Origin: Ophioderma brevispina
Lineage: Eukaryota; Echinodermata; Ophiuroidea; Amphilepidida; Ophiodermatidae
DNA length: 64,000 nt
Direction: 5' to 3'
Assembly (NCBI GenBank): GCA_023653785.1
Contig: JAMKCH010019701.1
Location: forward strand, 1-64,000
Shown here: positions 10,414 through 58,931 of the stretch, in pieces
Layout of the letters: each line of letters opens with the position of its first letter
How positions within the stretch are numbered: the first letter of the stretch is position 1
Translations under genes and position numbers: made by a program
The notes under the pieces: generated by a model
What the model was told of the DNA's origin: nothing
Database searches by the model: none
The model's input: only the letters and a program-made list of their open reading frames with translations

Positions 10414-10777
10414 TTAAAGACACCATCATTGATTCACCCCAAAGAGTCAAAATATTTGAAATTTGCAGAAATAGTTTAAATTGAAGAATAAGTCTGTATA
10501 ATTCTCATAAGTTACTTTTTCTAACTGAAGAATTGAGAGAAAAGGAAGAAATGGTAGTCTTCAAAGATATGACTCTCCATTGAATTACGTGTTGCAGTAA
10601 GTGTCCGTACGGACAGTAATGACTAAAATATCAGATTTTGTGCTTATTAGGCTGCTTCTGGCCTTATCATTTGCAGGATATGTTAGGGTACTTGTACTTG
10701 TTGCAGACATGCAAAAGTCTGATTTTTAATAATTTTTTCGATTTTATGATAAAGAAAATTACTGATAGCGCCTTTAA
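10414..10777 (-). mobile_element. TTAA-1 MITE, copy 1
   Basis: Bounded by TTAA at 10414-10417 and 10774-10777. The ends read TTAAAGACACCATCATTGAT and, inverted, TTAAAGGCGCTATCAGTAAT. The interior carries the family palindrome GTCCGTACGGAC, followed by AGTAATGACT, and the GGATATGTTAGGGTACTTGTAC block. Same orientation as 13777-14138 and opposite to 52933-53287 and 55830-56196. About 364 bp, non-coding. Confidence 0.9.
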
Positions 10778-10902
10778 ATAAATGATGTTTTCGGATAGGT
10801 CTTTAACAATTTCCAATGCAGACAATCAATTTTGTTTATGATTTGAATATCAATAGTGGCTAAACCTGAAAACAGAATGTCATCATAATTCGTCAGCTGT
10901 GT

Positions 10903-11256
10903 CACATAGTGACGTATTTGACATTTTGAGAAATTTGGCATATATTTTTGTTTTGTACTACTCAACAAATGCACCAAATTTTAAACCTCAAAGTGGCTTA
11001 ATTAGTAAAATATTAACTAATTATGACATATTTGGAATATGTTTAATTGTCCGCATTACATAACGACATATTTGTCGAAAATCTATTCAGTGCAGGCCCT
11101 GGGTGAAGGCCCAAAGCATCATATCTGCATTTTGATTTGCCGTTTCACATAGTGACGTATTTGTGCAAACGCATCACATTACGACATATTTTCACGACAC
11201 ATTTGTTATTTACACATTGAAATTGGTACTTTGTCGTTTTCACATAGTGACATACT
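10903..11256 (+). repeat. Cluster of five CACATAGTGACGTATTTG-like motifs
   Basis: An 18-bp motif recurs at 10903, 11055 (ACATAACGACATATTTG), 11146, 11175 (CACATTACGACATATTTT) and 11241 (CACATAGTGACATACTTT). Spacing is irregular, so this is not a simple tandem array. The core TGACGTA resembles a CREB/ATF half-type site. Function unknown. Confidence 0.5.
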
Positions 11257-11304
11257 TTATTTAACATAATTTTTTCAACAATCTAAATAAATTGTAAGTT
11301 GATT

Positions 11305-11753
11305 ACTCTCTAAATGCAAAAGAGTGAATTTCACTCTTTTAGAGTGACTACAGGGCCCACTCTGAAAAGAGTGAAATTTCACACCTTTCAAAGAACACTT
11401 TTTGGCAGGGCAGGAAAAAATGCATATTTCCCAGGAAGATAGTCACATTTCTCATAGATTTCCCACCGTTTTTTTTTATGTATTTCTTAATCTGAAAAGA
11501 CAAGATTTCCCTCCAAATGGTCAAATTTCCCGGGAAGGAGCTTCATAGATTCCCCACTTTTTCCCACCATGCTTTTTGGGTCAAATTTTATCTTGATAAT
11601 TGACAAAATGATATCCTTTTATCATTTGTTTAATTATAAAGAGTAAATTTGAGCCAAAAAGTATTCTTTGAAAGGTGTGAAATTCACTCTTTTCAGAGTG
11701 GGCCCTGTAGTCACTCTAAAAGAGTGAAATTCACTCTTTTGCATTTAGAGAGT
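11305..11753. mobile_element. Foldback element with ~100-bp terminal inverted repeats
   Basis: The left arm 11305-11406 and right arm 11653-11753 are almost perfect inverses. They begin ACTCTCTAAATGCAAAAGAG and include the near-palindrome AAGAGTGAATTTCACTCTT and the segment CTACAGGGCCCACTCTG. The 246-bp centre is AT-rich with repeated TTTCCC motifs and no frame. The long arms and subterminal palindromes fit a foldback-type MITE. The target duplication is unclear (flanks GATT and AGTT). Confidence 0.85.
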
Positions 11754-12270
11754 AGTTAAATATATTTGAAATGTAACTTATTTTGGCAATTTTTCACTAA
11801 TTCACTAATTGAAATATTAAAATTGCAAAATCTTCAAGCCCATTTTTCTCGAAATGCGTATTCTTCAAATATGTCAGTATGTGATGCGGCCAAGGAATAT
11901 TTTTGTTTTATTCTCATGTGTGCGAAGTATTTTTCTCCAATGGTAATTTAAAAGGATTCACAAATTGTATCTCTGGACTCCATGTTTATTCTCGACCAAT
12001 TTCACCTTTCCATTACTAAGAAATACCCTGGAAAAAGAGCAACAGCATTGTCATTACCATGGAAACCAAGATATGGACGATATCTGAACTTTTTATGGTC
12101 ATTCACAAACAGCAGGCATACCATTGCAACACAGCTCATCTCTATATCGAAGGTTGATTGCAAGAAGGCCCCATCTGCAATAGCTGCCATTTGTCAATTG
12201 TGTACTTATTAAGTGTTATTCCTGCCAAATCTAACACCTGGCAGCTATTGCAGTTTGAGCCTTTTTGCCC
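11754..12270. other. Spacer with a short match to the 19-kb array
   Basis: A frame at 11982-12212 has no recognisable domain. Its end (12163-12190, AAGGCCCCATCTGCAATAGC) matches the unit of the tandem array at 18958-20120, and CCTGGCAGCTATTGCA (12238) resembles CCTGGCAGCCATTGCA at 20215. So the flanks of that array are dispersed too. Confidence 0.4.
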
Positions 12271-12900
12271 TTAAAGGAAATATGTCATGATTCTGAATAT
12301 TTGGAAAATTTGGTATGGATGGAAAGCTTAAGTAACGTAGATTACATATAAATCAAAATAAGTTGAAAATTGTCCACATTTGTTGAGTATTTTGCCCTTT
12401 TAATTTCCCGCCCAATAGCTTACTCGAAAACGATTCCGACAAATCCACATCGCAGGCAAATGGTGACGTCAAAGTGATGACCATCCATAATTTACGTCGT
12501 TGTGACCATCATATCGCAGTGTTGCCACTTCAATAATAATTAAACACAACGAAATGAAACAAAATATGTCATTCTGTAACTTTTTTTTCTAATTTTATTA
12601 TTACTTTCATTAATCCATCAACATAACAGTGTCAGCAATAACAATTCGAGTAAACACGATGTTTTGGTCATCACTTTGACGTCACGAGTTGGGCGCTTTT
12701 GATCAATGAAGCCGTGGCGAAAAATCCGCCCGTTTTCTTCGTATGTCAAAAAAAAAAAAAAGCAAAAATTAAAATGTCTCTATTTTGTTAATTTTACATC
12801 AAATTGTATTATTTTTTCGGGAATTTGTGATGTATGTACATATATTTTATGAATGTAAGTCGAACTGAGCTTGACAAAAATCTTGACATATTTCCTTTAA
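12271..12900. mobile_element. TTAA-7 MITE
   Basis: Bounded by TTAA at 12271-12274 and 12897-12900. Ends: TTAAAGGAAATATGTCATGA and, inverted, TTAAAGGAAATATGTCAAGA. At 630 bp it is the longest TTAA element here. It carries an internal 21-bp perfect inverted repeat (12463-12483 and 12665-12685), each arm containing TGACGTCA-type sequence. No frame. Confidence 0.85.
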
Positions 12901-12912
12901 CCCTTGATATAG

Positions 12913-12914
<2 letters not shown>

Positions 12915-12982
<68 letters not shown>
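12915..12982 (+). repeat. 68-bp uninterrupted A tract
   Basis: The longest homopolymer in the window, directly after the TTAA-7 element and before a hAT-like right end. It could be a retroposon tail or slippage product. The exact length is doubtful, as homopolymers are poorly sequenced. Confidence 0.9.
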
Positions 12983-12983
<1 letters not shown>

Positions 12984-13118
12984 CAAAAATCATGCTAAAT
13001 CAGCCGTTTTTTAGCCCTCTGACCGGGAAAAATTGGCCTTTTGATCCCCCTAGGAGGGAAAATTTCCCAAGACTGGGAAATTTGCCCCTTCAGAGCGGAT
13101 AGGCCCGATACGCCACTG
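12983..13118 (-). mobile_element. hAT-like MITE right end
   Basis: Ends in GATACGCCACTG, the inverse of CAGTGGCGTATC, a hAT-type terminus like that of the element at 24182. The interior has repeated GGGAAA-ATTTCCC motifs. The left end was not found; it may be replaced by the adjoining A tract. Confidence 0.5.
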
Positions 13119-13265
13119 CACCTCACAGTGTGTTAAATGATTAGCTTTTCTACTGATGGTTTTTGGTTTGTTTTGTTTTGCTTTACGCTTTTGATATAGA
13201 TGATAATATGACAATATTCCTGCTGAACACAACTGTGCATCAAAGATATATTACTGACTACCAGG

Positions 13266-13473
13266 GCTTTTGAGTTTGAGGTGGGAGGTTTGAGGAGGAG
13301 AGGATTTCCAAAAAAGACTTGGAAGAAGCAAGTGGAGGAGAGTAGGAGGGTTGGGTTGAGGATGGAGGATGCATTGAATCGGGTGAAGAGGAAGGAGGGA
13401 GTAAGGGCGGTTGTTGCGAGTGTGAGGTGAATACGGCCACCCCCGTAGATTTAAAACTACTTTTACTACTACC
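13266..13473 (+). pseudogene. Non-LTR retrotransposon 3' end, copy 1 (5'-truncated)
   Basis: A clean 54-codon frame runs from 13266 to the stop at 13428-13430. It reads E-V-G-G-L-R-R-R-G, P-K-K-T-W-K-K-Q-V-E, then D-A-L-N-R-V-K and G-V-R-A-V. This is the conserved C-terminal tail downstream of the reverse transcriptase in a widespread invertebrate non-LTR family (RGRPKKTW motif region; from memory). One expected Arg is Phe here (RRRGFPKKTW). The copy is truncated 5' at about 13262 and ends in a (TAC)n-like tail at 13460-13473. It matches 16741-16950. Not an active element. Confidence 0.75.
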
Positions 13474-13496
13474 AGACTGGTAATGAACTCGTTAGA

Positions 13497-13780
13497 ATAA
13501 TATACACACTTGAAGACAAGCAAACTAATTACACCTTATACTGACTAACCTCGCAGCAAATTTTCTCATTGACTGTTGTTCAGTTAATGTGGAAAAATGT
13601 TTCTATTCCCCTCCCCAAGGAGGGGGAGGAATTAATTGCCTAATTTGAATCTTTGCAACTTTAGTTTACAGTATAACTTTTAATTTTACTCATCATAATT
13701 ACAAAAATATACACATTTGAAAGGCAAGCAAATAAATTACAACTTAAACTGACTAACCTCGCATCAAATTTTCTGATTGA
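13497..13780 (+). repeat. Local direct repeat pair (~85 bp units), second unit occupied by a MITE
   Basis: 13497-13583 (AATATACACACTTGAAGACA onward) is repeated at 13706-13780 and continues at 14139-14150. The second unit is interrupted by the TTAA-1 element. The first unit reads through TTTTCTCATTGACTGTTGTT without interruption and serves as an empty site. Confidence 0.75.
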
Positions 13781-14138
13781 AGACACTATCAGTGATTTAC
13801 CCGAAAGAGTCAAAATATTTGAGATTTGCAGGAATAGCTCAAAAGTGAAGGATTAAGTCTACATTTACAATTTTCATAAGTTGTTTTTTCCTACTGAAAA
13901 TTGATAGAAAAGGAAGAAAACGGCAGTGTTCAAAGATGCAAATAAATATCCATTCAATATGTGTTGTACTTAAGTGTACGTACGGAGAGTAATGACTGAA
14001 CTATCCGATTTTGAGGGTGCTTTTGGTCTTATCACTTGCAGGGTATGTTAGCATACCTGTACTTGTTACAAACATGCAAAAATCTGATTTTTGATGATTT
14101 TTTTTTCTGATTTATCAAATCACTGATAGTACCTTTAA
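13777..14138 (-). mobile_element. TTAA-1 MITE, copy 2
   Basis: Flanked by TTGA (13777-13780) and TTAA (14135-14138), with ends AGACACTATCAGTGATTTAC and AAATCACTGATAGTACCTTTAA. The interior matches copy 1 throughout; the central palindrome is degraded to GTACGTACGGAG. The left flank TTGA differs from the expected TTAA, and the nearby empty copy also has TTGA. Confidence 0.9.
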
Positions 14139-14543
14139 CTGTTGTTCAGCAAACTAACAAGAAAAAAATGCATACAAAATTAATTATTCCATCAACATGT
14201 TATTTCTAAAACATAATGGACATGCCATATCAACCTATGACAATAGTACATACAGCTGGAATCATCAGTCCATCACATGAAACAATCATGTTTCATTTAA
14301 ATAGACTTTCATTCCCAAATTAGAAAGGGGACAGGTGGTATAATTTCACATTGTGGTATGTGATATATTGCGGATAAGCAATTACCATTTTCTAGTTGGA
14401 GTCATTCTACTTTGCCAATTTTCTACAGGCAAGCAGTAACTGCACATACCGTATTGTCCGTTGATAGTTTTGAGTAAGCTGCTTAAAGGTACAGATGTGT
14501 GATCAAAATGAAAATATCTAAACAAAATGTTTTTGACTTTTCA
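14139..14543. other. No recognisable feature
   Basis: AT-rich spacer. TTAAAGGTACAGATGTGTGAT at 14483 resembles a TTAA-family end but no matching right end was found. Confidence 0.4.
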
Positions 14544-15091: not shown

Positions 15092-15144
15092 GTTACTATC
15101 TAAACACCTAGACCGATTTAACTCAAAATTTTGAATCAATTGTT

Positions 15145-15466
15145 TTGGCGATGTTCCTCCAATTAAGAGAGAGAACACATGAAAATTTTGACGATGATCA
15201 GGTCACCCACCCTCAAATTCCGATGCTAGCAAATGAACAAAATCAAAATGCCATAACAATCCATCTTTGCTCATTTTTTATTACAGGTTATCAAATAATT
15301 ATTTGTGCGGCAATAAGATCACTAAAACAATTGCTGCCTATAATTGGAATGGTAGAGTTAGATTTCAAATGAAATTTCCAAATTGACCAATTGATATGAG
15401 AGACAGTCTGTTTTATGAAACTGAGAGGCATGGTCTAGCCAGCTTCAAGTGCTTAGAAGTATGAGA
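15145..15466. other. No recognisable feature
   Basis: Spacer between the two duplicated copies. A 75-codon frame here has no motif. Confidence 0.4.
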
Positions 15467-16282: not shown

Positions 16283-16391
16283 TTGATGCGATGTTAATGT
16301 TGTCTTTATAAAACAGATAAAACAACCTCAAGTGTTGCCATCACAAAGAAATAATCAAAACACACAGTAGTAACTGTTATTTCATCTTCAA
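16283..16391. other. Short spacer
   Basis: No feature seen. Confidence 0.4.
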
Positions 16392-16950: not shown

Positions 16951-17614
16951 AATAATACCACATTTCCTATGACACATGTTCTCAATTTCAACTGATGTTG
17001 AAGTTTTGATATGGGTGGGTTTGTATTAATGAACTAAAATTCCTTCTAAGTTATTTAGCTGGAAATTATATAAGCCTACATGTCGTGAAGTGATGATTTC
17101 TTGTAATTAAGATCGGAATCTTTGAAGCAAGAGAAGTACACTATGGAGAGGGCTTTGTATCTGCTGTTAGTTTTACTACAAGGGCCATGCAGGGGGGGTC
17201 GGACACGATCTGCTCGATTTGGGCATTGGGGATTTCCAAACGGTCATTTAGGGAATTCTTACGTGTATTTTCTACGGCAGCCTCGGTCCCAGTGACATTG
17301 CAAAATCAACTTTTAACCTTCGTTCAATACATCTTAGTAATATCATGATAATTTAAGAAAAAATTATTGAATTCAAAATCCGTCGGGGTTAGTGGATTAA
17401 CCCCGCTGCAAAATAGTGTAATTTCCAATAACGGTCATTTAGATTTAAATATTTGTGACCAGGCCTAGCCTTAAGTCAAGTCTGTGTGTGACTGTTCGAT
17501 ATGCATAAGAGCGCCCTCCTACCGTTAAGTCTTTGAATAAGATTAGCACTCGGGTAACGCCGGAAGTTGATGCCGTTCTGTTGCTGTTAGGTTGGCATGT
17601 CCTACCCCCCCTGA
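16951..17614. other. No recognisable feature
   Basis: AT-rich with one G run (17191-17197). Nothing supported. Confidence 0.4.
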
Positions 17615-17719
17615 GGGCCATGATCGGATGACAAATAGCCTCATCCCCAGAACCCCAGATTTTACCGGAAATGGTCAAAATTTTGGTATCTGAAGAAAGC
17701 TACTTTTCCTCATTTGCCC
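17615..17719 (-). mobile_element. TTAA-6 MITE, copy 5 (truncated at a TG microsatellite)
   Basis: Matches the reverse orientation of 21510-21863 from GGGCCATGATCGGATGAC through AATAGCCTCATCCCCAG, ATTTTACCGG and GGTATC to CATTTGCCCTG. Similarity stops abruptly at the TG repeat, at the point where other copies read CCCTGTGAAAT. Confidence 0.8.
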
Positions 17720-17762
17720 TGTGTGTGTGTGTGTGTGTGTGTGCGCACGCGTGCATGTGCAT
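17720..17762 (+). repeat. (TG)n microsatellite
   Basis: Perfect TG run to about 17743, followed by CGCACGCGTGCATGTGCATAT. Confidence 0.95.
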
Positions 17763-21509: not shown

Positions 21510-21863
21510 TTAAAGGGGGATGGCCCGATTTAAGTCTATAAGTTTTTCATCTTGATAGAATGGCCTTCACCCCAAAACCACATCTGTAAAGTTTCGCGCC
21601 GATATTTCAACCCGTTTTGATGTGAGAGCTAAAAACGTGATTTTGCAATCCCCATAGAGTACTGTGTAAAATTAATATTGGTCGACCAAAAAAGGGCACA
21701 TTTTCTCTCATAACATCCAAACCAAACATCCTTTAGCCCTAAGATTTCACAGAGTAAATGAGAAAAATAGTAGCTTTCTTGTGATACCAAAATTTTGACC
21801 ACTTCCGGTAAAATCTGGGGTCCCTGGGGACGAGGCTATTACAATCGGACCATGGACCTTTAA
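21510..21863 (+). mobile_element. TTAA-6 MITE, copy 2 (best preserved)
   Basis: Bounded by TTAA at 21510-21513 and 21860-21863. Left end TTAAAGGGGGATGGCCCGAT; inverted right end TTAAAGGTCCATGGTCCGAT. 354 bp, no coding capacity. The right TTAA runs straight into a CA microsatellite. Confidence 0.9.
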
Positions 21864-22980: not shown

Positions 22981-23674
22981 ATATGGAATTCACTCAAAAT
23001 GATAACCTCTTTAAAAGGAGGAAAAAGTGATTGGCAAACTGGGCAAATTTATAACATTTAGGAAAAAAGGCATCTAATTAATTTTAAACAATAATTATGA
23101 TATCTCCTTTTGCCATGTTTGGTGCTTTCCTCTCTACTTGAGGCCGATTTTTTAAAATTGCTCTGTATATTATAAGTATGGTAGTGCTTTTTTTAAAATT
23201 CAAAGCCAATTAGGTGGATGAGGTCAATAAAAGATCTAAGAAATCCAACAAGCAATGGACAGTTCATTTTAATGGTTTCAAAAAATAAGGGCATCAAACA
23301 AGTCAGAATATTGTAAAACAATAGGCAAATAGGAAATGTTGCCTATGTTTTCAGGTGAAGCAGAATTCATTTGAAATAAGGGGATGGCAAAGCACAGTTG
23401 AGTTTCTTTAATAATATTTGATTAACAAATGTGTTCGATAAAGCCCATCAAGTCGTATACAATTTGTATTTATTTGTGTTTGTTGTTTCCATCAATAGCA
23501 GATTCATATAATTTTAAATTTAGAACTAATAAACGTTTACTATAGTTCTTATTAAAATCTTTACTTAGTAGTGGTAGGATTTAATATCTTGAGCAAGACT
23601 TTATGCAGAGCAGGAGTATGGACCTAGTAAAACATGATTGTTCACCCCACTGCAACTAAACCAAAGTAAAAAAA
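22981..23674. other. No recognisable feature
   Basis: AT-rich spacer. Confidence 0.4.
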
Positions 23675-24181
23675 AGCAAACACTTAAATTCCTAATGTTA
23701 CATGGAGACATGTTAACTACACCAGAAAAAAATAGCAAACACTTAAAATTCCCAATGTTACATGGAGACATGTTAACTACACCAGAAAAAATAGCAAACA
23801 CTTAAAAATTCTCAATGTTGCATGGAGACATTTTAATACCAGAAAAAATAGCAAATGCTTAAAATTCCAAATGTTACAAGGAGACATGTTAACTACACCA
23901 GAAAAAAAAAGTTAAAATTCCCAATGTCTAATACATGGAGACACGTTAACTACACCAGAAAAAATAGCAAACACTTAAAATTTCCAATGTTAAATGGAGA
24001 CATGTTAACTATGTCCAGAAAAAATAGCAAACACTTAAAAATTCCTAATGTTACATGGAGACTGCTACACCAGAAAAAATAGCAAACACTTAAAATTCCC
24101 AATGTTACATGGAGACATGTTAATTACACCAGAAAAAATAGCAAACACTTAAAAATTCCTAATGTTACATGGAGACATCCT
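23675..24181 (+). repeat. 59-bp minisatellite, nine units
   Basis: Unit: AGCAAACACTTAAAATTCCC, then AATGTTACATGGAGACATGT, then TAACTACACCAGAAAAAAT. Nine copies of 55-61 bp. Unit 7 lost ATGTTAA-type bases and unit 5 lost its start. Frames within are repeat translations. The last unit is cut by the hAT element. Confidence 0.95.
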
Positions 24182-24476: not shown

Positions 24477-24484
24477 GACATCCT

Positions 24485-41108: not shown

Positions 41109-41445
41109 TTAAAGGCCGAGTCAGAGATTTCCTGATGAGGGTGCATTCAATTTTCAAACAAACTGTTTTTTTGCATAATGCATAATGGTTGTCCATATAC
41201 TATCAAGCTCAAATTGAAGTCCTTCATAGAGAAAATCACAACCTTGTTATATATTTCTTGATCCTGAATTTTTGTTATACACAGTATCCAATGGCACTGT
41301 TGTACTGTGCATATATGTTTACTGCATGAAAACGGAAAATCCGATTCATCTCTAACTTTGGAATTAAGCATTTCAGGCGACTATCTTTACTTCTAAATGA
41401 CTATTTTTAATACTACACATAAAATTGTAATTTGAAAAATGACAA
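41109..41445 (+). mobile_element. TTAA-4 MITE, copy 2 (right end decayed)
   Basis: Begins with TTAA at 41109 and TTAAAGGCCGAGTCAGAGAT. It then follows 58591-58931: GAGGGTGC, TTGCATA..ACATAATG, TTGTCCAT, AGCTCAAAT, CTTCATA-GAAAATCAC, TTACTGCAT, AAAATCCGATTCATC, TGACTATTTTTAAT. The right inverted end is not recognisable. Confidence 0.8.
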
Positions 41446-43103
41446 AAAATACAAGTTTGAACTTCCGAAGGGCCTGTAACAGTTAATCCTTTAAAGTGTC
41501 CATGCTCTAATAAATATTCAATCATTACAATTTCTAAAGATCAAAATGCCTAAATTATCCTACACAATATTTAAAAATTCCAATTCAAGACTATTTCCTA
41601 TTGGGGGGTTGGTCAAAATCGGCTCAAGAGCAAATTGGATATATTGGTGGACAATAAGTACCCACCCCAAAGAGTTTTGAAAACATTAATACCACACCAC
41701 ATTGGTCCTTCCGGTGAGCAACAATCCAACCATAATGGATGGTTGTCCATTTTCTTAGCAAGTCAAACAAAAGAAACTACACCTCCGCTGTGATTACAAT
41801 TAATCAAATACGACAAAGTGGACAAAATGGACAGAAGCAATGGCCAGTGATAATTTGGCCTGTCCAATTCATTGAATCCAGCGAAGCATAAGTCACCATT
41901 AACATAATGCCACTGGCACACAGCTTGGGTTAGTTAATGATGATATTTCAACATGATCAGTGATGATTGCAATTCTGGGCAAGATGAGGTCGGATCACTT
42001 TGATAATGAACTCCGAGGGTTGTCATTACAGTCAACAAGCTCTGTTGTGACACAACAAAGAAATGAAGCAAGAACAGAATTACATTTCCATTCCATGGCA
42101 AATTGTATCAACAAAATGCAGAGGATGACCTTGAAAATAGTTAAAAATATCATAAAACATGTGATACCTTTATATTTATCTACAATTAAACACTAATTAC
42201 TGATGGTATATATTTTATCTAACAAACTCACATTATCGGTACACATACCTTTGAGCTATGCTTTGAGCATGCACGTAGTGGTGTGGAAAAACAAAGCCAT
42301 CCATGACTGATGGATCGAGAATTGACAAAAATTTAACGGTGGAAACTTTATATAACCGTACTTTGAAAACTAATTTAAAAAGAACAGAAAGTGCCATGTA
42401 TTTAACAACAGCAGTCTAGGCGGCATCTCCCGATTTCACTGGAATACAAATAAAATATTCTGATAATTTCCTATTCCTGCTTCGAGTGACTAATTCGGTA
42501 TTAATATTGTTATTTCACTTGACTGTAAGTCATTCAACAATAGACATATTTCAACCTGCCACTCATTTCAAATGTTAATATTGCCGCTCTTTCCAAAGCA
42601 TGCTTTCAAAATTTTATCATCCTTAGATAATCCCCAAATAGAGCAAATATATTTTACCACTGAGGAGAGCTAGGTGCTCGGTGCTTGTGAACTGCAATGC
42701 TGAACTTTTTGAACGTTCATAAATGATGTTTTGCAGTTACTTTGAGATGGAAAATCATTATTTTTTTACTCATACCCTGATGTGACATTAGACCCCATAA
42801 GTTTATGTCATTGCCAGGGAGATCTCACATAAGTTCTTTACTTGCAGTATTTTTTAAAATATATTCTTAAAGTAGTTTTTGTCTTTAAAACATGACAAAC
42901 CATATTTTTTTAGCCTGTTATGTAGCCTTTTTTTTAATTTTAGGCCACAGTCGGTATCAACTTCCAGTAGAAATCACATTTTGCAGCAACAATTTGTTAT
43001 GAATGAGCAAAGATAGCACCTATTCAGAACATTTATGAAATTCACAAAAGTTCGTTGTACAAAGATAAATTTCAATGTTTTCACTTGTGAGATTCTCTTG
43101 TCT
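41446..43103. other. No recognisable feature
   Basis: A 78-codon frame at 41960 without motifs. AT-rich. Confidence 0.4.
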
Positions 43104-43223
43104 GTTCAAATGGTGAATAGGATGTTCAAATGGTAAATTGGATGTTCAAATGGTAAATTGGATGTTCAAATGGTAAATTGGATGTTCAAATGGTAAATTG
43201 GATGTTCAAATGGTGAATTAAAT
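43104..43223 (+). repeat. 20-bp minisatellite, six units
   Basis: Unit GTTCAAATGGTAAATTGGAT at 43104, 43124, 43144, 43164, 43184 and 43204. The four inner units are identical; the first and last differ at two or three bases. Confidence 0.97.
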
Positions 43224-45553: not shown

Positions 45554-46198
45554 TTGAAAGTTCCACGGTCCAATAGCTAATAGCCTCGTCCCCAGGGACC
45601 CCACAATCTTAGCCAAATGTGTTGGAACATGACTGCCTCGTTTTGGCCCCGATTATTGCACCCCGCATTTCTCTTAAAAAATATATAGGAAATCATGTCA
45701 CCTTGGGTTGGGAGGCTTGGAGGCATTCTCTATCCAGGCACCCCTCCCTATCCCCACCAATCACTGTTGAGTGTTCTGGAGTTGTGGCAGAACAACATTT
45801 CAACAGATTCAACATTGTCCAGGGGGAGGGGGGGCATTTTGAAGTACGCCTATAAAAGTGTTCACACTTTGGCTAAGATTGCCCGATTTTTTACCGTATT
45901 GTCAATATTTCGGTATCAGAGGAAAGCTACTATTTTTCCCATTTTACCCTGTGAAATTTTAGGGGCTAGAAGGGATGTTTGGTTTGGATGTTATGAGCGA
46001 AAATAATGCTCCGCCCGTTTTGGTCCAACCATATTAATTTTTACATCAGTCCTCCTAGGGAAATTAAAAAAACAGACTTTTTCATGTCTCAATCAAAATG
46101 GGTTGAAATAGCGGTGCGAAACTTTACAGATATAGGGTTTTGGGGTGAAGGCTAATCTATCAAGATGTATAGACTTACATCGGGCCTTCCACCTTTAA
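45554..46198 (-). mobile_element. TTAA-6 MITE, copy 4, split by a nested element
   Basis: The left part (TTGA at 45554, then AATAGCCTCGTCCCCAGGGA) and right part (ATTTTTTACCG through TTATGAGCGAAAATAATG to CGGGCCTTCCACC and TTAA at 46195-46198) together match inverted 21510-21863. They are separated by the foreign insert 45605-45880. Frames of 78 and 103 codons spanning the join are incidental. Confidence 0.85.
45605..45880. mobile_element. Inverted-repeat element nested in the TTAA-6 copy
   Basis: Ends AATCTTAGCCAAATGTG and, inverted, AATCTTAGCCAAAGTGTG. 276 bp with GGAGGCTTGGAGGC and a G run (45822-45834). Uninserted relatives at 21510 and 2850 lack it. Superfamily not determined. Confidence 0.7.
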
Positions 46199-49751: not shown

Positions 49752-49915
49752 AGGGATTCAAACATGTTACAGAGTGATTCATCACAAACAACGATGCATC
49801 CATGCGTCCGCATATTTTTATCCAAAGTTGCCAGAGCGGGATAAAAATATGCGGACGCATGGGATGCAGAGTTGTTGATTTGTGATGAACCACTCTGTAA
49901 CGTGTTTGAATCCCT
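49752..49915. repeat. Near-perfect 164-bp hairpin (inverted repeat)
   Basis: Arms 49752-49823 and 49839-49915 pair almost completely around a 15-nt loop. The arms start AGGGATTCAAACATGTTACA and end at the loop with GCGTCCGCATATTTTTATCC; a few mismatches and a 3-5 nt bulge lie near ACAACGATGCATC. No frame of interest. It could be a palindromic MITE, or if transcribed a small-RNA precursor. Confidence 0.9.
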
Positions 49916-51014: not shown

Positions 51015-51369
51015 TTAAAGGTGCACCGAGAGATTTTGAGGCACCCAAATATTGTGTCATAATAGTAATTTCATATAGATTAGACACTCAATAGATTTTG
51101 TATCTTGTATTTGGCCACAGGAATGTCTTAAAAGAGAGAAAAAGGGTGACTTTGATTTGCTTATATTTTAATATAAAACATGGCTGAATTTCGTATTTGC
51201 TCCTATACGAAATTAGAAATTTCACAATTTTTGTACCAAAGAAACATTTCTCAGTTTAATCCTTTCAGATGTGGATATTTTTGATGGAAAGCTTTACATC
51301 AGGGCAAAAATCAGAACTTTCAATTTTTTAGGGACACCTGATATGTGAAATCTCTCGTTGCACCTTTAA
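51015..51369 (+). mobile_element. TTAA-3 MITE
   Basis: Bounded by TTAA at 51015-51018 and 51366-51369. Ends TTAAAGGTGCACCGAGAGAT and, inverted, TTAAAGGTGCAACGAGAGAT, followed by TT. 355 bp, non-coding. Its right TTAA is at the same time the left TTAA of the TTAA-8 element. Confidence 0.92.
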
Positions 51370-51904
51370 GAGGCACTGGCACATTTGATTTTTCAAAATT
51401 GATATTGTGCATGGTTGTAAAGCTTTTATATACCTTACCCCTCACCTGAAATTATTAAGACCAAATCAGGACCCTTATGGGTAAACAGAAGTTAGCCAGT
51501 GGTGTAATGGTGGTGGGGGGGGGGAGATACACACATATACATATACCACAACATATTTACACTTTATGCGTAGAGCGCTGTAATTTGGGGTCGCTGGTGT
51601 TGGTTTAAATCATGCCCAATGTAAAATTTATGTCAGACTGCCTACCCACCCAACCAGCCCCAAAATAACACTTAACGTTTGTACACTAGTGTCTATGGAG
51701 ATGGGACCAAAATTCGACCTGCCCACAGAAATTGCCTTGGCACCCCTTCAGTGTGGTTAGGCCACTGAAGCTTGCCTACAAATTACCTGGATGTCTTAAT
51801 GCCCCTATCTGTTTTTTTTTTATGTTACTTTTATGTGTGAAAAATATTTTGTGAGCAATTTGAAGAAATTTCATATTTTGTGAAAATGTGCCAGTGCCGC
51901 TTAA
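51366..51904 (+). mobile_element. TTAA-8 MITE
   Basis: Bounded by TTAA at 51366-51369 and 51901-51904. Ends TTAAGAGGCACTGGCACATT and, inverted, TTAAGCGGCACTGGCACATT. 539 bp, with a G run at 51514-51523. It lacks the extra AG after TTAA seen in the other families. Shares both boundary TTAAs with its neighbours. An internal segment recurs at 48712-48791. Confidence 0.9.
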
Positions 51905-52241
51905 AGGTGCATTTCGTGATTCCAGCCCCTTCTGTTTCATTCATTGTTCACTAGATATCCTTGAGAAAAGCTTTTTCACAACCTTTTAGCTGATCCTGAC
52001 TTTGCGGTTTTGTGTTATGAGCAACGTTTCCCACGGTCCCATAGGCCACTGTGCTATAATTTCTCTCCGTTTACGGACAGAAAAAACAAAATTGCGAATT
52101 GCTTACAGACACGGCCGAATTTGCACATAAGATTTGGCACACATGGATTACTAATGTTAACGGTTCAGATGATATGAAAATCTCAACTTTTTTGAGGTAA
52201 GTCGGGGGTACGAGGCTGTGGATCATGAAATGCCCCTTTAA
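51901..52241 (+). mobile_element. TTAA-2 MITE, copy 2
   Basis: Bounded by TTAA at 51901-51904 and 52238-52241. Ends TTAAAGGTGCATTTCGTGAT and, inverted, TTAAAGGGGCATTTCATGAT. Collinear with inverted 7146-7504. Its last 67 bp are included in the tandem duplication that follows. Confidence 0.92.
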
Positions 52242-52705
52242 ATAGTTTAAACTGACATTTTCCCTGATGGGAATGAGCCATATCCATTCCAACATTGTTT
52301 TCAATCTTTTTCTTTACAGAAAATGACTGAGAAATTATACATTTAAAGTTGGGATTTAATACTCAAGTGACTATCATTTGGTTAATACGCATCACACAAC
52401 TGCCAGCAATAATGAGTTGCATTCAGTACGCAATATTGCATTGGGCACTTTACACCTTGTGCATTCAAATCAGGATAACTAAAGTCGCTTATGTCACTGT
52501 ACTTATTTAGGATGTAAACAACTCGTCTTTTGCACTAGTTGTTTTCTCCTGAATTTGCTACGTTTCAGGTAACGGACTAAAAAAAAACGGGGTTCACACT
52601 GCATGTTTAATCCCGTCATAATGTGTCGTCAATGGGAAAATACATTTAAATAATGGTTCAGGTTTTCCTGCCTCAGACAAGTCAATTGGTCATCAACATG
52701 AATTT
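52175..52705 (+). repeat. Tandem duplication, copy 1 (empty)
   Basis: 531-bp unit starting TGAAAATCTCAACTTTTTTG inside the TTAA-2 element and ending CATCAACATGAATTTT. It is nearly identical to 52726-53605 outside the MITE; differences seen are an A-run length, ATTGGGCAC versus ATTAGGCAC, and ATTTGG versus AATTGG at the insertion site. It carries the uninterrupted TTAA (GGTTAATACGC, 52380-52390). Confidence 0.93.
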
Positions 52706-52725
52706 TTTTTTTTTTTTTTTTTTTT
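52703..52725 (+). repeat. T run at the duplication junction
   Basis: About 23 T separate the two duplicated copies, growing out of the GAATTTT end of copy 1 and the TTTTTTG start of copy 2. Confidence 0.9.
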
Positions 52726-53605
52726 TGAAAATCTCAACTTTTTTGAGGTAAGTCGGGGGTACGAGGCTGTGGATCATGAAATGCCCCTTTAAATAGTTTA
52801 AACTGACATTTTCCCTGATGGGAATGAGCCATATCCATTCCAACATTGTTTTCAATCTTTTTCTTTACAGAAAATGACTGAGAAATTATACATTTAAAGT
52901 TGGGATTTAATACTCAAGTGACTATCAATTGGTTAAAGACACTATCAGTGATTTGCTAAATCAGCAAATCGAAAAAATCATCAAAAATCAGATTTTTGCA
53001 TGAATGTAACAAGTACAGGTATCCTAACATACCCTGCAAATTATAAGACCAGAAGCAACCTAATAAGGACAGAATCGGAGATTTGAGTCATTACTGTCCG
53101 AACGGACACTTACTACAACACGTAATTGAATGGAGGATCGTATCTTGGAACACTGCCGTTTTCTTCCTTTTCTGTCAATTCTACAGCTGGAAAAAGTAAC
53201 TTAAAAGAATTCTACAGACTTATCCTTCACTTTGAAGCTATTCCTGCAAATTTCAAATATTTTTCAAATCACTGATAGTGTCTTTAATACGCATCACACA
53301 ACTGCCAGCAATAATGAGTTGCATTCAGTACGCAATATTGCATTAGGCACTTTACACCTTGTGCATTCAAATCAGGATAACTAAAGTCGCTTATGTCACT
53401 GTACTTATTTAGGATGTAAACAACTCGTCTTTTGCACTAGTTGTTTTCTCCTGAATTTGCTACGTTTCAGGTAACGGACTAAAAAACGGGGTTCACACTG
53501 CATGTTTAATCCCGTCATAATGTGTCGTCAATGGGAAAATACATTTAAATAATGGTTCAGGTTTTCCTGCCTCAGACAAGTCAATTGGTCATCAACATGA
53601 ATTTT
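52726..53605 (+). repeat. Tandem duplication, copy 2 (occupied by TTAA-1)
   Basis: Matches 52175-52705 but contains the 355-bp TTAA-1 element at 52933-53287. Confidence 0.93.
52933..53287 (+). mobile_element. TTAA-1 MITE, copy 3, with empty site next door
   Basis: Bounded by TTAA at 52933-52936 and 53284-53287. Perfect 23-bp inverted ends starting TTAAAGACACTATCAGTGAT. Interior palindrome GTCCGAACGGAC. Comparison with 52380-52390 shows that one TTAA became two: a single-element insertion with TTAA target duplication. Confidence 0.96.
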
Positions 53606-53639
53606 GGTCTCACATAAATTTGCTACTTTTTTTTAAACA

Positions 53640-53775
53640 CACTATAAAGAGGGTTAACTGTCCAAGTTTAATGCCCTCATGTGCTGTGTCATCTGCAGGA
53701 AAAACTATTAAAATAATAATGGTCCAGGGTTTTCCTGCCTCGGACATATTATACGGTGATAAACATGAGCTCCTT
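53640..53775 (+). repeat. Older diverged copy of the duplicated unit's end
   Basis: GTTTAATGCCCTCATGTGCT, GGTCCAGGGTTTTCCTGCCT and GATAAACATGA follow the same order as 52600-52705 and 53500-53605. A still more diverged version lies at 55060-55175. So this segment was amplified before the recent duplication. Confidence 0.65.
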
Positions 53776-53808
53776 CCTATCCTCATATGTTCAATGCACA
53801 ATATGCGC

Positions 53809-54136
53809 TTAAAGAGACACAAGGACAATTACAGAATGAAGCGCCCCTAATATTTTTTGAACCCGGGTTTTTTGCTTATTTGGAATGCTTTGTATTCGAT
53901 CAAACGTAAGCTGAATACGACGTCTTTCTGTTATGCATGGCAGAAAATCAAAGCATGGTTTTCTAGAGGGACGATTACGATAGCAGGCAAGTTCAAACAC
54001 GGTTTGCAGTTTTCCGTTGTACTTGTTGTCCAATAAACCTTCGAAATGTTCTCGGTAGGTGGTCTACAATCAATCTAGTGCAATTTGAGAGAAATTTGTA
54101 TCCTGAAAAAAAATCTCCTCAGAACTGTCACTTTAA
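53809..54136 (+). mobile_element. TTAA-5 MITE, copy 1
   Basis: Bounded by TTAA at 53809-53812 and 54133-54136. Left TTAAAGAGACACAAGGACAA, inverted right TTAAAGTGACAGTTCTGAGG. Internal near-palindrome TTTCTGTTATGCATGGCAGA at 53924. 328 bp. Matches inverted 60390-60732; overlapping frames are incidental. Confidence 0.85.
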
Positions 54137-55717
54137 TTGATGCTTTATGCTTTTGAATTGGGTCGTCACTTACACCGCAGAAGCTATATAGATCACTCTA
54201 GAGGTACGTCACTTCCGCTAAGCCGTTGACAAAAATGACGAATCGCCCAAAATAACATAACGCAGATGGTAAATAGTCCTTTGTTTTGCTGCATTTTTGG
54301 AAACTTTAGGGTTATAATATGTCAACTTAAATAGTTTCATTTGTTATGGTTTGGAGTTTGAGTCAGATTGGCAAATGCAAGACAATAATTTTTGTATCAT
54401 CTGCCTATGTGACTTGCAAATCTCCGAGTGTGTTTCTACTGGCAACTTGGCAAAAGCGGCTTTCGCTGACCAGCTAAGGACCCGGGTTTTTCCGCTATCT
54501 CAGCTGTTTCTATTAAAAGGCACATACCAGTATGTGGCATGCTCAACTGCACTTATGATGCTTACTGCTATCGACTGTTTCTACTGGTGAAATAGCAGCA
54601 TGCAACATGCCAAAAGCCTTCACAGAGTAGGTTTGATTTTACCGTATAACGTCGCATTAAAATAGAGGGTCGGTCTGTTTTTTACAGAGTTGGATAACAG
54701 ATCGATCCATGTCCGACATGGTATACGGCCTCAGTAGAAACACACTGTCAAAAGTTTGCAAACTTAATTGTATAATTTTAAAACAAAATCAGAGCACCGG
54801 GACATTATGATACAAACATTTGCTCTTAACACTAAAATGCCAAGATTAGAATGAACTGAAATTTGGGGAGTAAACTTTTCTGAAATATACCTAGTAACTA
54901 TAAACAAAACCACTGTTACAATCATTAAAATTTAAATGTACCTTTAATACTCTGGTAAGTTGTAAAAACAATTAGTCATTTATGCTTGAAATGTAAGGCT
55001 TGGATTGTGGATTTTGAAATAAACTGTGCAACATTTAGGTAATAAAATCAGAATTGAGGAGTTTCATGTTCACGTTAAATGCCCTCATGATATGTACTAA
55101 TTCCCAGGAAACCATTAAATGGGCTTGGTTCATTTATGTTTTTCCTGCCCTGGATTTATCATTCACTCATATATATGAACCACTTATCCCATACTTCAGC
55201 AATAATCAGCAAACCATACGCACAGAATACCAATTAACTTGTTGAATGACAAAAACATAATTTACACCCCTTTAGTAGCAACAGATTTTTAATTATTTCA
55301 ACACAAGGTTTACTCAGTGTTGGCCCAACTCGCATATTTTTAGGGGCATGACTTGGAATGATGACATTCCGGCAAACTCATTATGTTGACACACCAAGTG
55401 CATCTTCACAGCCCATCACACCAAGCTATCACTTCAGTGTGACAAAAACGTAATTTGTTGGGCCTTGTGTCCATATTCATCACATTGACCATCTGACCTT
55501 ATTCAAGGACAAACAAGGTCAAATTTAATGTACTACATTGAATGAAGCTTGCCTTAACTGAAAGCATAGTAATATGGTCAAATTACAATTGCTTGTATGC
55601 TTGCAAATTTACTATGGTCAACTTTATTGTGGTTATACAGGTCTGGGTTATCTATTATGGGAAGTCCAAATGTTAGAACACATATCCATATTGTGTGTGG
55701 CTTCACTGGCCTTGCCT
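54137..55717. other. No recognisable feature
   Basis: Contains the diverged repeat at 55060-55175 and TGACCTTATTCAAGGACAAA at 55495. Frames up to 79 codons lack motifs. Confidence 0.4.
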
Positions 55718-55828
55718 TTGTGTGTGTATGCATGAATGTGTGTGTGTTTATGTGTGTGTGAATGTGTGTGAATGTGTATGTGTATGCATACATGCATGTG
55801 TGTGCATGTGCATGAATGTGTGCATACA
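55718..55828 (+). repeat. (TG)n / TGAATG compound microsatellite
   Basis: Alternating TGTGTG, TGAATG, TATG and CATG units. Antisense His/Thr-rich frames over it are artefacts. Confidence 0.95.
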
Positions 55829-55829
55829 T

Positions 55830-56196
55830 TTAAAGGCACTATCAGTGATTTGCTTAATCAGAAAATAAAAAAAATCTTTAAAAATCAGATTTTTACATGT
55901 TAATAATAAGTGTAGGCATCCTAACATACCCTGCAAGTTGTAAGACCAAAAGCAGCATAATAAGGACAAAATCGGATATTTTAGTCATTACTGTCCGTAC
56001 GGACACTTACTACAACACGCACGCATTTGTATGGAGATTCGTGTCTTGGAATATTCCTTTTCTAGCAATTTTTCAGTGGGGAAAAATAACAAAAATAACT
56101 TATGATAATTCTATAGACTTATCCTTCACTTTTAAGCTGTTCCTGCAAATTTCAAATATTTGACACTTTTGGGTGAATCGCTGATAGTGTCTTTAA
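55830..56196 (+). mobile_element. TTAA-1 MITE, copy 4
   Basis: Bounded by TTAA at 55830-55833 and 56193-56196. Ends TTAAAGGCACTATCAGTGAT and, inverted, TTAAAGACACTATCAGCGAT. Intact palindrome GTCCGTACGGAC near 55994. Inserted directly at the edge of the TG microsatellite. Confidence 0.93.
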
Positions 56197-56569
56197 GATG
56201 ATACACAAAGTTGGTAAAATTAACACGAGGAAAAAGGTCAAAGGTCTCATGCACGAAAAATAAATGCACAGCAGCAATTTTCACTTTCAGATCTCATACT
56301 CCCACAGCTATCAGCTATTCAACAGCTCAAGCTTGATTTATTTGTTGATGGATTCTTTCTATTCTGTCACTCACCCCTAAATAACAATCTGACCTTCATC
56401 AGGACAAGTCCCAGATAAACAAGCATGTTTGTTGTAGAACATGCCATACATTTTTACTTTTTGTGATCATTATTTTTACGATTTTTCTTTTACAACATGC
56501 ATCAGTCTAATAATTGTCTGGCAATAGAAGAAATTTGAGGAAAATATGTTTATCTATTTTTTTCTATTC
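56197..56569. other. No recognisable feature
   Basis: Spacer; CTGACCTTCATCAGGACAAG at 56390 resembles the TGACCT-TCAAGG motif at 50846 and 55495. Confidence 0.4.
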
Positions 56570-56896
56570 TTATGGAGACATAAGGGCACTAAAAAACTAC
56601 TTTTTTTGTGTTGTTTTTATTTATTTATACATTGAATGGTTACCAGTGAATTAATATGAAAAGTGAAAATGATTACTAGTAGTATTTTCTGTCATGCTAG
56701 ACAGAAAATTCAAGCATGTTTCTCCTTAGGGCTGGCTTAGACAATGGCAAGTTCAAAACTTAGTTTTCATTTCCTTTGAGTTTCCCATTTATTTTGTTCA
56801 GTAAAACTCTGAAACATTTTCAGGTGTTGTTCTACAACCACTACAGTGCAACCTTCGAAAAATTTGTTCCTTCAGAAAACTTCCGTCTCCTTTTAA
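56570..56896 (+). mobile_element. TTAA-5 MITE, copy 3 (diverged)
   Basis: From TTATGGAGACATAAGG to TTAA at 56893-56896, 327 bp, the family's length. Matching parts: TTTTCTGTCATGCTAGACAG (near-palindrome), GCAAGTTCAAA, TTTGAGTTTCCC and CAACCTTCGAAA. Its right TTAA is also the left TTAA of the TTAA-4 copy that follows. Confidence 0.7.
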
Positions 56897-56964
56897 AGGC
56901 TGACTCGGACTTCCACACGATGCCACCCTCGATTTTCTACCAAATCAGGCATGCATACATATAA
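56893..56964 (+). mobile_element. TTAA-4 MITE, copy 3 (5' fragment)
   Basis: TTAAAGGCTGACTCGGACTT, then GCCACCCTCGATTTTCTACC and CATGCATACATATAAAATG correspond to the first ~75 bp of 58591-58931. Sequence beyond is unrelated, so it is truncated. Confidence 0.7.
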
Positions 56965-57520
56965 AATGTCCCCGAAGACTAAATGGGGACAACAAAGAGG
57001 ATAAATCGGGATGAGAAGTGGAGAAAGGAGAGGGAAAAGAAAGAATGGAGGATAGTCGCCACTTACAACATGCAGGGAATATGTCTGGTCTATTGTTTAC
57101 CCCCAGCCTCCACAAGTTTTTGCAATTATTGTCCAAAATAGGTTCAAAGGGGCAAAAATATTGAAATTGACTTTTTCCCCAGAAAGTGTTTGACGAATAT
57201 TTTCTATTATTTTGTTTATCACCTTGTGAAGCTTTTGTTTCAAAATTTGAATGAAAAGTGATTCAAAATGAGGATTTTTCAAAGGTATCTCTGTTGACTC
57301 AATTACTTTGTGCAAACTTGAACCTTATTTTCTCGGTTTGTTTTCAAGGCATCGTCATTTAACAATATTATAGGATCCATATTTGTCCTGTTGTCATGGG
57401 GTTTTCACTAAAATGCTGTGTGAATAATGCTCTTTTGAGGAAAAATACCATGAAACCAACACTTTATTTTGGTCAACTTCAGACTGACTTTGCTTTATTG
57501 CATCACATATAATGGCATAT
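56965..57520. other. No recognisable feature
   Basis: A purine-rich stretch at 56993-57055; otherwise nothing. Confidence 0.4.
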
Positions 57521-57906
57521 ATACCGTACTGACCTAAGTATAGTCCCATGCTCAATTATAATCCCACCCCAAGTTTTGAAAGAATCTGAAGAATAGTAGA
57601 AAATCCTATCATAATCCACTATTAGTTTTTTACTGGAAGGCAATAGGTAACATGCAATTTTTGTTAAAGTCATTGCTGTTTTGGTAGTATCTTCTAGTGA
57701 TTTTCTTTACAAAATTAGGTCCATGCTTCAGTTCATTTACAAGTCTTTGTTGATCATGCACACCTCATTTGACGCATGAAAATATCTAGAGTAAATTTAG
57801 TTCTGAAAGGCTAAAATGTTGATGCTCATGTGTTTCATGTTAGGGTGGAGATCATATTATAATCCCAGCCCCTAAATTCAAGCAAAGGACTATACTATAC
57901 AGTATT
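57521..57906. mobile_element. Inverted-repeat MITE, ATACNGTA ends
   Basis: The left ATACCGTACTGACCTAAGTA-TAGTCC, then CAATTATAATCCCACCCC, is mirrored at the right by GGGATTATAAT-type and GGACTATACTATACAGTATT sequence (ATTATAATCCCAGCCCCTAA also occurs in direct sense near the right end). About 386 bp. Imperfect; class not determined. Confidence 0.5.
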
Positions 57907-58000
57907 TGTGGAGAGAGGCAAAGAGGTAAAGTAAGTACCTTTTTCCCAAGGATACAACTTTGTTGTGGTTTGAACCTAGCCTATCATTAAGGCATTGCAC
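57907..58000 (-). mobile_element. tRNA-derived SINE, copy 2 (decayed)
   Basis: GGAGAGAGGCAAAGAGGTAAA, CCCAAGGATACAACTT and GTTTGAACCTAGC align in order with 36318-36396. The B box is decayed (GGTTCAAAC on the minus strand) and no A box remains. Confidence 0.5.
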
Positions 58001-58590
58001 TTTATTTTTATTTCCTACAGTCCCTGTCTACGATGTGGTATAGTGCCCTCTCATGGCGAGTCTGCATCACCTAAAGTTCCGCATTTATTTTGTGTTTTGT
58101 TTTTCTTTATTTTCCGGGATAAATCTTCTGTCTACAACTTTCCTGGGAACTGATTGAGCAATACATAGTAAGGCACCTTGCAAATGCATTGCGGTCAATC
58201 AAATGTGATAATACTACCTTGTGGCGGCACTGTTTTATGTTACTGTTGGGCATTCGTTGAGGTTAAAGAAAAGGTTGGGTTGACAGATAATGTTGGTATG
58301 AGCAATCAATTAGTAGGTACAATCCTCAATATGATGACCACGTAATACTTTGATTGACACATTAGTGCCTGCACAAAACTATCCCTATTTTCACAAAGAC
58401 GCCTCGCTACGCTCAGCCAAGGGCTTTGCCCTTGATTGACACGCACCTCCGACGAGCCTGGATGAGGCGTCTTTGACAAAGACTAAGTTTGAACCAATAA
58501 CTTCCCAATTTTATTATATAGAGAGTACAAGGTTCTAACAAATGCACCACTGTGTCCTTCATTGTCTATGCAAGCTATGTAGCAATGTCT
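58001..58590. other. Spacer with a hairpin at 58393-58475
   Basis: ACAAAGACGCCTC (58393) pairs with GAGGCGTCTTTG (58464), and a small AAGGGC-TTT-GCCCTT stem lies inside. No partner copy in the window. Confidence 0.5.
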
Positions 58591-58931
58591 TTAGAGGCTG
58601 ACTCGGAGATTTCCCCAGGAGGGTGCCCTCAGTTTTCTTATAAATTGTGCTTTTGCATATATACATAATGCTTGTCCATTATACTAATCACCATCACTGT
58701 ATGAAATAGCCAAGCTCAAATCAAAGTGCTTCATATAGAAAATCACATCATTGTTATAAAATTCCATACACACACTATCCTTTGGCACTGTTATGCTATA
58801 CATAAATATTTACTGCATCAAAATGAAAAGTCCGATTCATCCATTTTAGGTGACTACCTTTAGTTCTAGGTGACTATTTTTAATCAATACCCACAACAAA
58901 ATTATATTTTGAAATCTTAGTCAGCCTTTAA
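58591..58931 (+). mobile_element. TTAA-4 MITE, copy 1
   Basis: The left flank TTAG (58591-58594) is a one-base decay of TTAA; the right TTAA is at 58928-58931. Ends AGGCTGACTCGGAGATTTCC and, inverted, AGGCTGACTAAGATTTC. 341 bp. Collinear with 41109-41445. Confidence 0.88.

What the first reader, a model, noticed from the sequence alone, without database searches (positions are those of the whole stretch)
10414..58931. Unrelated TTAA MITE families share one end signature: TTAAAGR-N10-GATT
Five families with unrelated interiors (TTAA-1, -2, -3, -4, -6) have GAT starting exactly at position 18, counted from the first T of TTAA, at most ends I could read: AGACACTATCAGTGATTT, AGGTGCATTTCGTGATTC, AGGTGCACCGAGAGATTT, AGGCTGACTCGGAGATTT, AGGGGGATGGCCCGATTT. 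TTAA-7 has it one base later at both ends; TTAA-5 three bases earlier. The middle ten bases differ completely between families. This looks like a two-part recognition signal for one transposase lineage that mobilises many families. The AG start argues against classical piggyBac (CCY) and is closer to what I recall for Kolobok, which also uses TTAA.
Basis: partly seen in the sequence, partly recalled or inferred. Interest (0 to 1): 0.8.

Follow-up and report, generated by a model that had tools for sequence, protein, structure and literature searches.

The report
TTAA mini-transposons with shared two-part ends
Several families of short, gene-less jumping DNA in this animal genome carry the same two-part end mark at a fixed spacing, and some of them also share a hidden core in the middle, so they look like an old clan moved by one kind of enzyme, which was not found.

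Summary
The end signature is real. In the window TTAAAGR-N10-GATT occurs 12 times, 0.2 expected; among all 79 TTAAAG sites GATT peaks at offset 18 (12; next best 3). Genome-wide: 142,560 against 6,577 for the reversed pattern; one base wider, 26,547 against 8,978. The TTAA-5 exception dissolves: its common genomic end has GAT at 18. TTAA-7 is a true N11 family.

'Unrelated interiors' is only partly right. Seven family consensuses, all 346-367 bp, fall into two groups by interior similarity (z 4.7-14.4). Three carry the exact central core CCATAG-nn-TACTGTG beside a palindrome, two a variant; genome-wide 18,288 against 205. The ten bases between the anchors match within an element (mean 7.5 of 10, 37 elements) but not between families (3.2).

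An empty paralogous copy shows precise TTAA insertion. TTAA with AG...CT ends fits Kolobok and T2-MITEs, not piggyBac's CCY; no transposase could be tied to these ends. Ordinary in kind; the modular architecture is the unusual part.

The parts
10414..10777 (+). F1 (TTAA-1) element, 364 bp; ends AGACACCATCATTGATT / AGGCGCTATCAGTAATT
13777..14138 (+). F1 element, 362 bp; left TTAA reads TTGA, GAT at 18 at both ends
52933..53287 (-). F1 element, 355 bp, TTAA on both sides, inserted in one copy of a local duplication whose other copy has the empty TTAA site (52382-52385)
55830..56196 (-). F1 element, 367 bp
51901..52241 (+). F2 (TTAA-2) element, 341 bp; core CCATAGGCCACTGTG (one mismatch) at 52039 followed by a palindrome
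7146..7504 (-). F2 element, 359 bp; left end TTAAGG with GAT at 18, right end without GAT at 18
52726..52792 (+). Right-end piece of an F2 element carried by the local duplication
51015..51369 (+). F3 (TTAA-3) element, 355 bp; ends AGGTGCACCGAGAGATT / AGGTGCAACGAGAGATT; palindrome near the centre
41109..41455 (+). F4 (TTAA-4) element, left end intact, right end decayed; on the minus strand it carries the core as CCATTGGATACTGTG (one mismatch, 41294)
58591..58931 (+). F4 element, 341 bp; left TTAGAG, right end with GAT at 16
53809..54136 (-). F5 (TTAA-5) element, decayed ends
60397..60732 (-). F5 element; palindrome with perfect 13-base arms at 60569-60594; end with GAT at 15
21510..21863 (+). 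F6 (TTAA-6) element, 354 bp; core CCATAGAGTACTGTG at 21652, palindrome TTGGTCGACCAA
2849..3186 (+). F6 element with decayed ends
45557..46198 (-). F6 element carrying other DNA inside, GAT at 18 at 46198
6473..6670 (-). F6 fragment
17614..17723 (-). F6 fragment
12271..12900 (+). F7 (TTAA-7) element, 630 bp, GAT at offset 19 (N11 spacing) at both ends

Best explanation
These are non-autonomous TTAA-inserting DNA transposons (MITEs of about 350 bp) of an old clan, moved in trans by DDE transposases most likely of the Kolobok type. Each end is a bipartite recognition site: an outer AG beside the TTAA cut site, an inner GAT-Y fourteen bases in, and between them a ten-base block that is specific to the family and nearly the same at both of its ends. 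I propose that the two anchors touch the conserved part of the enzyme and the block is read by its faster-evolving DNA-binding part. Shown: the signature, its preferred spacing, one precise TTAA insertion, the family-specific likeness of both ends, the interior kinship and the central core. Inferred: the kind of transposase, which part of it reads what, and any role of the core.
For: Fixed-offset signal. Precise insertion: after leaving out 52933-53287 with one TTAA, the flanks match the empty copy 52175-52706 in 527 of 532 columns. Size: seven consensuses of 346-367 bp. 94 of the first 100 genome places fall to the seven families at 3 or fewer differences of 10, a loose limit. Kinship of interiors. 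Kolobok marks: TTAA, 5'-RR...YY-3' (PMC9587614); all ten full-length Xenopus Kolobok copies in PMC6004289 Table 5 begin with AG; the F1 end resembles one of them (AGGGGAACTATCATGA; 10 of 500 shuffles as good; one of eight ends tested, so weak).
Against: No transposase gene was tied to these ends. THAP (PF05485): 15 matches in the genome; I read 2.7-5 kb at 4 of them and saw no pair of signal ends round the THAP exon. A TTAAAG-N11-GAT site about 330 bases before one THAP match (L050:176) is unique in the genome, hence probably chance. PF20700 'Mutator' DDE transposases: 63 matches; I read part of the surroundings of 2, with no TTAAAG...GAT end. The 2-kb stretch 56893-58931 between two F4-like ends has no Pfam match above cut-off. 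None of the ten Xenopus Kolobok elements shows GAT at element bases 14-16; only 16 bases are printed. Spacing is not absolute: N11 families exist. Ends were collected by TTAAAG, so the constancy of AG is partly built in, and most elements used for consensuses were chosen with GAT at one end at least.
Confidence: 0.66

Rival explanations
1. Common descent alone: the families are diverged copies of one or two ancient MITEs, and the shared AG/GAT letters are simply what has not yet changed, with no special role in recognition.
For: Two interior groups, {F2,F4,F6,F8} and {F1,F3,F5}, are linked by z-scores of 4.7-14.4; all have nearly the same length; several share the central core.
Against: Within F2/F6/F8 the ten bases between the anchors differ between families yet agree at the two ends of a family, while the anchors stayed. 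Unconstrained decay would not keep GAT at one offset beside bases that share only about 3 of 10, nor change both ends alike.
Confidence: 0.18
2. Different transposases, one per family, that came to the same anchors independently; the signature is a general requirement of TTAA transposition and not of one lineage.
For: Family-specific middle blocks; true N11 families (F7, AGAGTTCTCGACCTGATT) beside the N10 ones.
Against: Interior kinship links six of the 21 pairs of consensuses. The signature is no general need of TTAA transposition: coral piggyBac elements begin CC (PMC2872659), and none of the ten Xenopus Kolobok elements shows GAT at bases 14-16.
Confidence: 0.1
3. They belong to piggyBac or another TTAA superfamily (Sola3) with unusual termini.
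For: TTAA target site. A count of piggyBac transposase genes in this genome could not be had, so their presence is untested.
Against: All seven consensuses begin with AG, none with CCY, though ends were collected by TTAAAG. Sola3 as a TTAA superfamily is recalled; only a search listing was seen.
Confidence: 0.06

Closest known systems
T2-MITE family of Xenopus (with XKol / Kolobok transposons)
   Same: TTAA target, AG-starting TIR, many sub-families, predominant in the genome, evidence of recent movement (PMC6004289: abstract, passages, Background, two Results sections, one Discussion section)
   Different: T2 is defined by AGGRR; here only F7, the left end of F6 and the right end of F2 fit. 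A GAT anchor at a fixed offset and a shared central core are not mentioned in what I read.
CMITE families of Acropora corals
   Same: TTAA MITEs whose families differ in their TIRs but share the interior; an empty allele shows insertion with TTAA (PMC2872659: outline, part 1 of 2 of Results, one Discussion section)
   Different: About 100 bp, CC[C/T]T ends, related by the authors to piggyBac. Here about 350 bp, AG ends, interior mostly diverged with a short shared core and palindrome.
Kolobok superfamily (incl. KolobokP)
   Same: TTAA duplication and 5'-RR...YY-3' ends (PMC9587614: passages and Background)
   Different: No transposase found with these ends. [quoted passage not shown]

Membership tests
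Kolobok superfamily (as non-autonomous members) | TTAA target site duplication | tested here: met
   Empty paralogous site GGTTAATACGC against GGTTAA-[element]-TTAATACGC; TTAA at both sides of the elements listed (they were sought by TTAA)
Kolobok superfamily (as non-autonomous members) | 5'-RR and YY-3' termini | tested here: met
   All seven consensuses begin AG and end CT; ends were collected by TTAAAG, so partly by construction
Kolobok superfamily (as non-autonomous members) | Autonomous partner with the same ends that encodes a Kolobok transposase (DDE, THAP, H2CH) | tested here: inconclusive
   THAP 15 matches, PF20700 63 matches; parts of 4 and 2 places read, no signal ends round a transposase
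T2-MITE family | TTAA plus terminal AGGRR | tested here: not met
   AGGRR at both ends only in F7, at one end in F6 and F2; not in F1, F3, F4, F5, F8
piggyBac | CC[C/T] terminal motif | tested here: not met
   All seven consensuses begin AG
MITE | Short, non-coding, TIRs, target duplication, many copies | tested here: met
   346-367 bp; about 136,000 signal ends above control; of 35 window frames of 100 codons or more, one (45689-46006, stop to stop, no Pfam match) lies inside an element, the F6 one with other DNA in it, and 53521-53850 overlaps one slightly

The most novel reading that the evidence does not exclude
The ends are modular: AG and GATY are fixed contacts for a conserved transposase core, and the ten bases between are a swappable address that changes at both ends together when the DNA-binding part of the enzyme changes. 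A third cis-element, CCATAG-nn-TACTGTG plus a palindrome kept by paired changes, sits in the middle and is needed for movement. If so, one MITE chassis has been re-addressed several times to stay mobile.
Probability: 0.28. Interest if true: 0.7.

Novelty: new variant of a known kind. Interest (0 to 1): 0.46.

Why it matters
How a MITE stays mobile after its parent transposon dies is an open question. A clan in which the anchors, and in part a central core, persist while the address block differs between families but agrees at both ends gives a direct, countable test of co-evolution between a transposase and its site, with more than a hundred thousand end copies in one genome. It also gives an annotator a short rule for finding these elements: TTAA-AG-N11-GATY.

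Tried and rejected
Viral contigs were searched for the F1 end and for the PF20700 protein: nothing. tRNA and Rfam scans of the window: nothing. Ten of the 35 window ORFs of 100 codons or more against Pfam: one weak match below cut-off. Six frames of 56893-58931 against Pfam: one weak match below cut-off. Pairs of like TTAAAG ends 0.9-9 kb apart in all DNA then held: nine, by look chance pairings or ends of separate MITEs; only 56893-58931 was scanned for a gene. A possible autonomous left end before a THAP exon (L050:176, seen on rechecking) occurs once in the genome and has no partner end in the 2.7 kb held: dropped.

The core as a universal feature was tested on each consensus with 100 shuffles. 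F2 and F6 (from which the motif was taken) and F4 (not used for it; 12 of 13, 0 of 100 shuffles) pass; F1, F3, F5 and F8 do not pass this ungapped test. F8 has it with one extra base, and an F5-type copy at L020:3580 has 11 of 13 beside its palindrome (six two-mismatch hits also occur for the reversed control in the same 264 kb). F1 and F3 have only the palindrome. The longest palindromic stem exceeds all 40 shuffles in F2, F3 and F5 only (unresolved bases filled at random, which may help F5). In F1 and F8 a longer stem lies elsewhere than at the centre; F4 has a poor one.

Interiors of single copies gave weaker links than consensuses in most cases: F2-F6 5.9, F3-F5 reversed 4.3, F1-F3 3.3, F2-F4 reversed only 2.2; F7 linked to none (at most 2.1). 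Left out of the consensuses: F7 (one copy), the F6 element with other DNA inside, the second copies in the repeated block of L036, a 423-bp F3 pair (L003/L004, one place) and composite pairs spanning two elements.

Literature: listings; papers opened in part: PMC6004289, PMC9587614, PMC2872659, PMC9367165. I saw no description of this end signature or core there; T2-MITE classification papers in subscription journals were not seen.
Full report
What was checked. The finding says that TTAA mini-transposons with unrelated interiors share TTAAAGR-N10-GATT ends. The window holds 12 exact matches against 0.20 expected. To avoid choosing ends by eye I took all 79 TTAAAG sites of both strands: GATT starts at offset 18 in 12 of them, the next best offset has 3, and no other TTAANN hexamer peaks above 3. 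In 200 kb from 20 other contigs of the same genome the peak is again at 18 (6 of 199 sites, next best 3, mean elsewhere 0.94). The window is contig C19694 of a 2.51-Gb genome in 65,844 contigs, and the pattern occurs 142,560 times there against 6,577 for the same pattern read backwards. With one more base in the gap there are 26,547 against 8,978. The spacing one base shorter could not be counted.

Exceptions. TTAA-5 is not an exception: its usual genomic end is AGAGACATGAGGAGATT with GAT at 18, and the window copies have lost or gained bases. TTAA-7 (12271-12900) is one: AGGAAATATGTCA[A/T]GATT recurs among the 100 listed N11 places, and so does another family, AGAGTTCTCGACCTGATT. Some right ends read GATC: TTAA-2 in 5 of 6 elements, TTAA-6 in 2 of 4, and F8 (AGGTGCTTGTTCCGATT, a family not seen in the window) in 3 of 8, so the anchor is GAT-Y.

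One insertion shown. A 532-bp stretch at 52175-52706 is repeated at 52726-53605 with an F1 element in it. Leaving the element out with one TTAA, 527 of 532 columns are identical, and the empty copy reads GGTTAATACGC where the filled one reads GGTTAA-[AG...CT]-TTAATACGC. The insertion is precise and, by the near-identity of the copies, recent. The copies may also be two alleles joined by the assembler; a run of 19 T lies between them.

Families. From window copies and small stretches of the genome I made majority consensuses of seven families: F1 (7 copies), F2 (6), F3 (6), F4 (3), F5 (3), F6 (4), F8 (8). They are 366, 346, 357, 367, 362, 355 and 346 bp long. Of these 37 elements, 33 left and 25 right ends have GAT at 18; most had been picked with GAT at one end at least. 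Of the first 100 places listed, 94 fall to these families within 3 of 10 differences; the limit is loose, and two places counted under F2 (AGGGGCACTCCTTGATT, AGAGACATTCCTTGATT) look like a further family.

Interiors. They are not simply unrelated. Global alignment of interiors (21 bases trimmed from each end; both orientations of 21 pairs) against 200 shuffles gives z 14.4 for F6-F8, 6.5 for F2-F4 reversed, 5.8 for F2-F6, 5.1 for F2-F8, 4.7 for F1-F3 and for F3-F5 reversed; of the other 15 pairs the best are 3.5 (F4-F8 reversed) and 3.1 (F3-F4 reversed), the rest below 3. By these links there are two groups, {F2,F4,F6,F8} and {F1,F3,F5}. With single copies instead of consensuses most links are weaker. 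The 630-bp F7 links to none.

A central core. In F2, F6 and (reversed) F4 the middle reads CCATAG-nn-TACTGTG, followed within about 5-15 bases by a palindrome; F8 has CCCTATTCAATACTGTG, and an F5-type copy has CCATAGAACACCGTG. The palindromes differ between families but stay palindromic: F6 TTGGTCGACCAA and F8 ATGGTTAACCAT lie at the same consensus position with two base pairs changed on both sides; F2 TTTCTGTCCG-TT-TACGGACAGAAA; F1 TGTCCGTACGGACA; F3 and F5 longer ones. Their centres are at 0.45-0.54 of the element in six of seven families. Limits: by length the best stem beats 40 shuffles in F2, F3 and F5 only; F1 and F8 have a longer stem elsewhere; F1 and F3 lack the core, and F5 and F8 fail the ungapped core test. 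Genome-wide CCATAGNNTACTGTG occurs 18,288 times against 205 reversed; the NN values in the 100 listed places are mainly AG (F6), GC (F2), GA (F4) and AC, the last perhaps a further family that I could not read. Of the 12 listed cores on contigs C4-C27, 8 have a listed signal end upstream at 138-164 bases (7 with N10, 1 with N11; 4 have none listed), as expected for a core in the middle of a 350-bp element.

How it probably works. The two anchors of the end, AG and GAT-Y fourteen bases in, are common to families of both groups, while the ten bases between are family-specific and alike at both ends: 7.5 of 10 on average within an element (37 elements, decayed ones included), 3.2 between families. 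In the related F2, F6 and F8 these ten bases differ between families but agree at both ends. I read this as a bipartite site: fixed contacts for the conserved part of the enzyme and an address block for the part that varies. This is inference. Copy number: about 136,000 ends above control; with one or two intact ends per element that is very roughly 68,000-136,000 elements, not counting decayed and GATC ends.

Which transposase. TTAA with AG...CT fits Kolobok (PMC9587614) and the T2-MITEs of Xenopus; the ten full-length Xenopus Kolobok copies listed all begin with AG, though none shows GAT at bases 14-16 of the 16 printed (PMC6004289). It does not fit the CC[C/T] end of piggyBac (PMC2872659). 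I could not tie a gene to these ends. THAP: 15 matches, surroundings of 4 read; a lone end-like site before one of them is unique in the genome. PF20700: 63 matches, surroundings of 2 read in part. Whether PF20700 proteins are Kolobok transposases is not known to me. The piggyBac count did not complete.

Host. Not named. Of 81 relatives of one PF20700 protein, six bear an animal's name: Lytechinus, Diadema and Anneissia (echinoderms, recalled), Littorina twice, and Lingula. Size and GC resemble the brittle star assembly of PMC9367165 (2.68 Gb, 38.4% GC; passages seen), which has another number of scaffolds. A brittle star is a guess.

Verdict. The families are MITEs of a known kind; the modular end and the partly shared core make them an unusual variant. 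The transposase remains to be found.

Noticed in passing
52175-52706 and 52726-53605: Local duplication, 527 of 532 columns identical outside the MITE, separated by 19 T: either a recent duplication or two alleles joined in the assembly.
   Followed up: partly
11304-11406 and 11653-11754: Inverted repeat of 103 bp, 98% identical, about 250 bp apart, itself containing short hairpins: perhaps a foldback element of another kind.
   Followed up: no
49752-49915: Inverted-repeat palindrome of about 165 bp, 83% self-complementary.
   Followed up: no
23668-24178 and 43103-43219: A 60-bp tandem repeat of about 8.8 copies (83% matches) and a 20-bp one of 5.8 copies (96%).
   Followed up: no
G000, listings: Further families not in the window: AGAGTTCTCGACCTGATT ends (N11), AGRGRCAYTCCTTGATT-like ends, and the core variant CCATAGACTACTGTG.
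   Followed up: no
L036 (C10:300-10299): MITE-bearing blocks repeat at an exact shift of 5,015 bp within 10 kb: a segmental duplication or an assembly artefact.
   Followed up: no
L053:1822-3117 (-): Open frame of 432 codons with a PF20700 DDE transposase domain, cut by the contig end; 72% identical to an unnamed public protein.
   Followed up: partly
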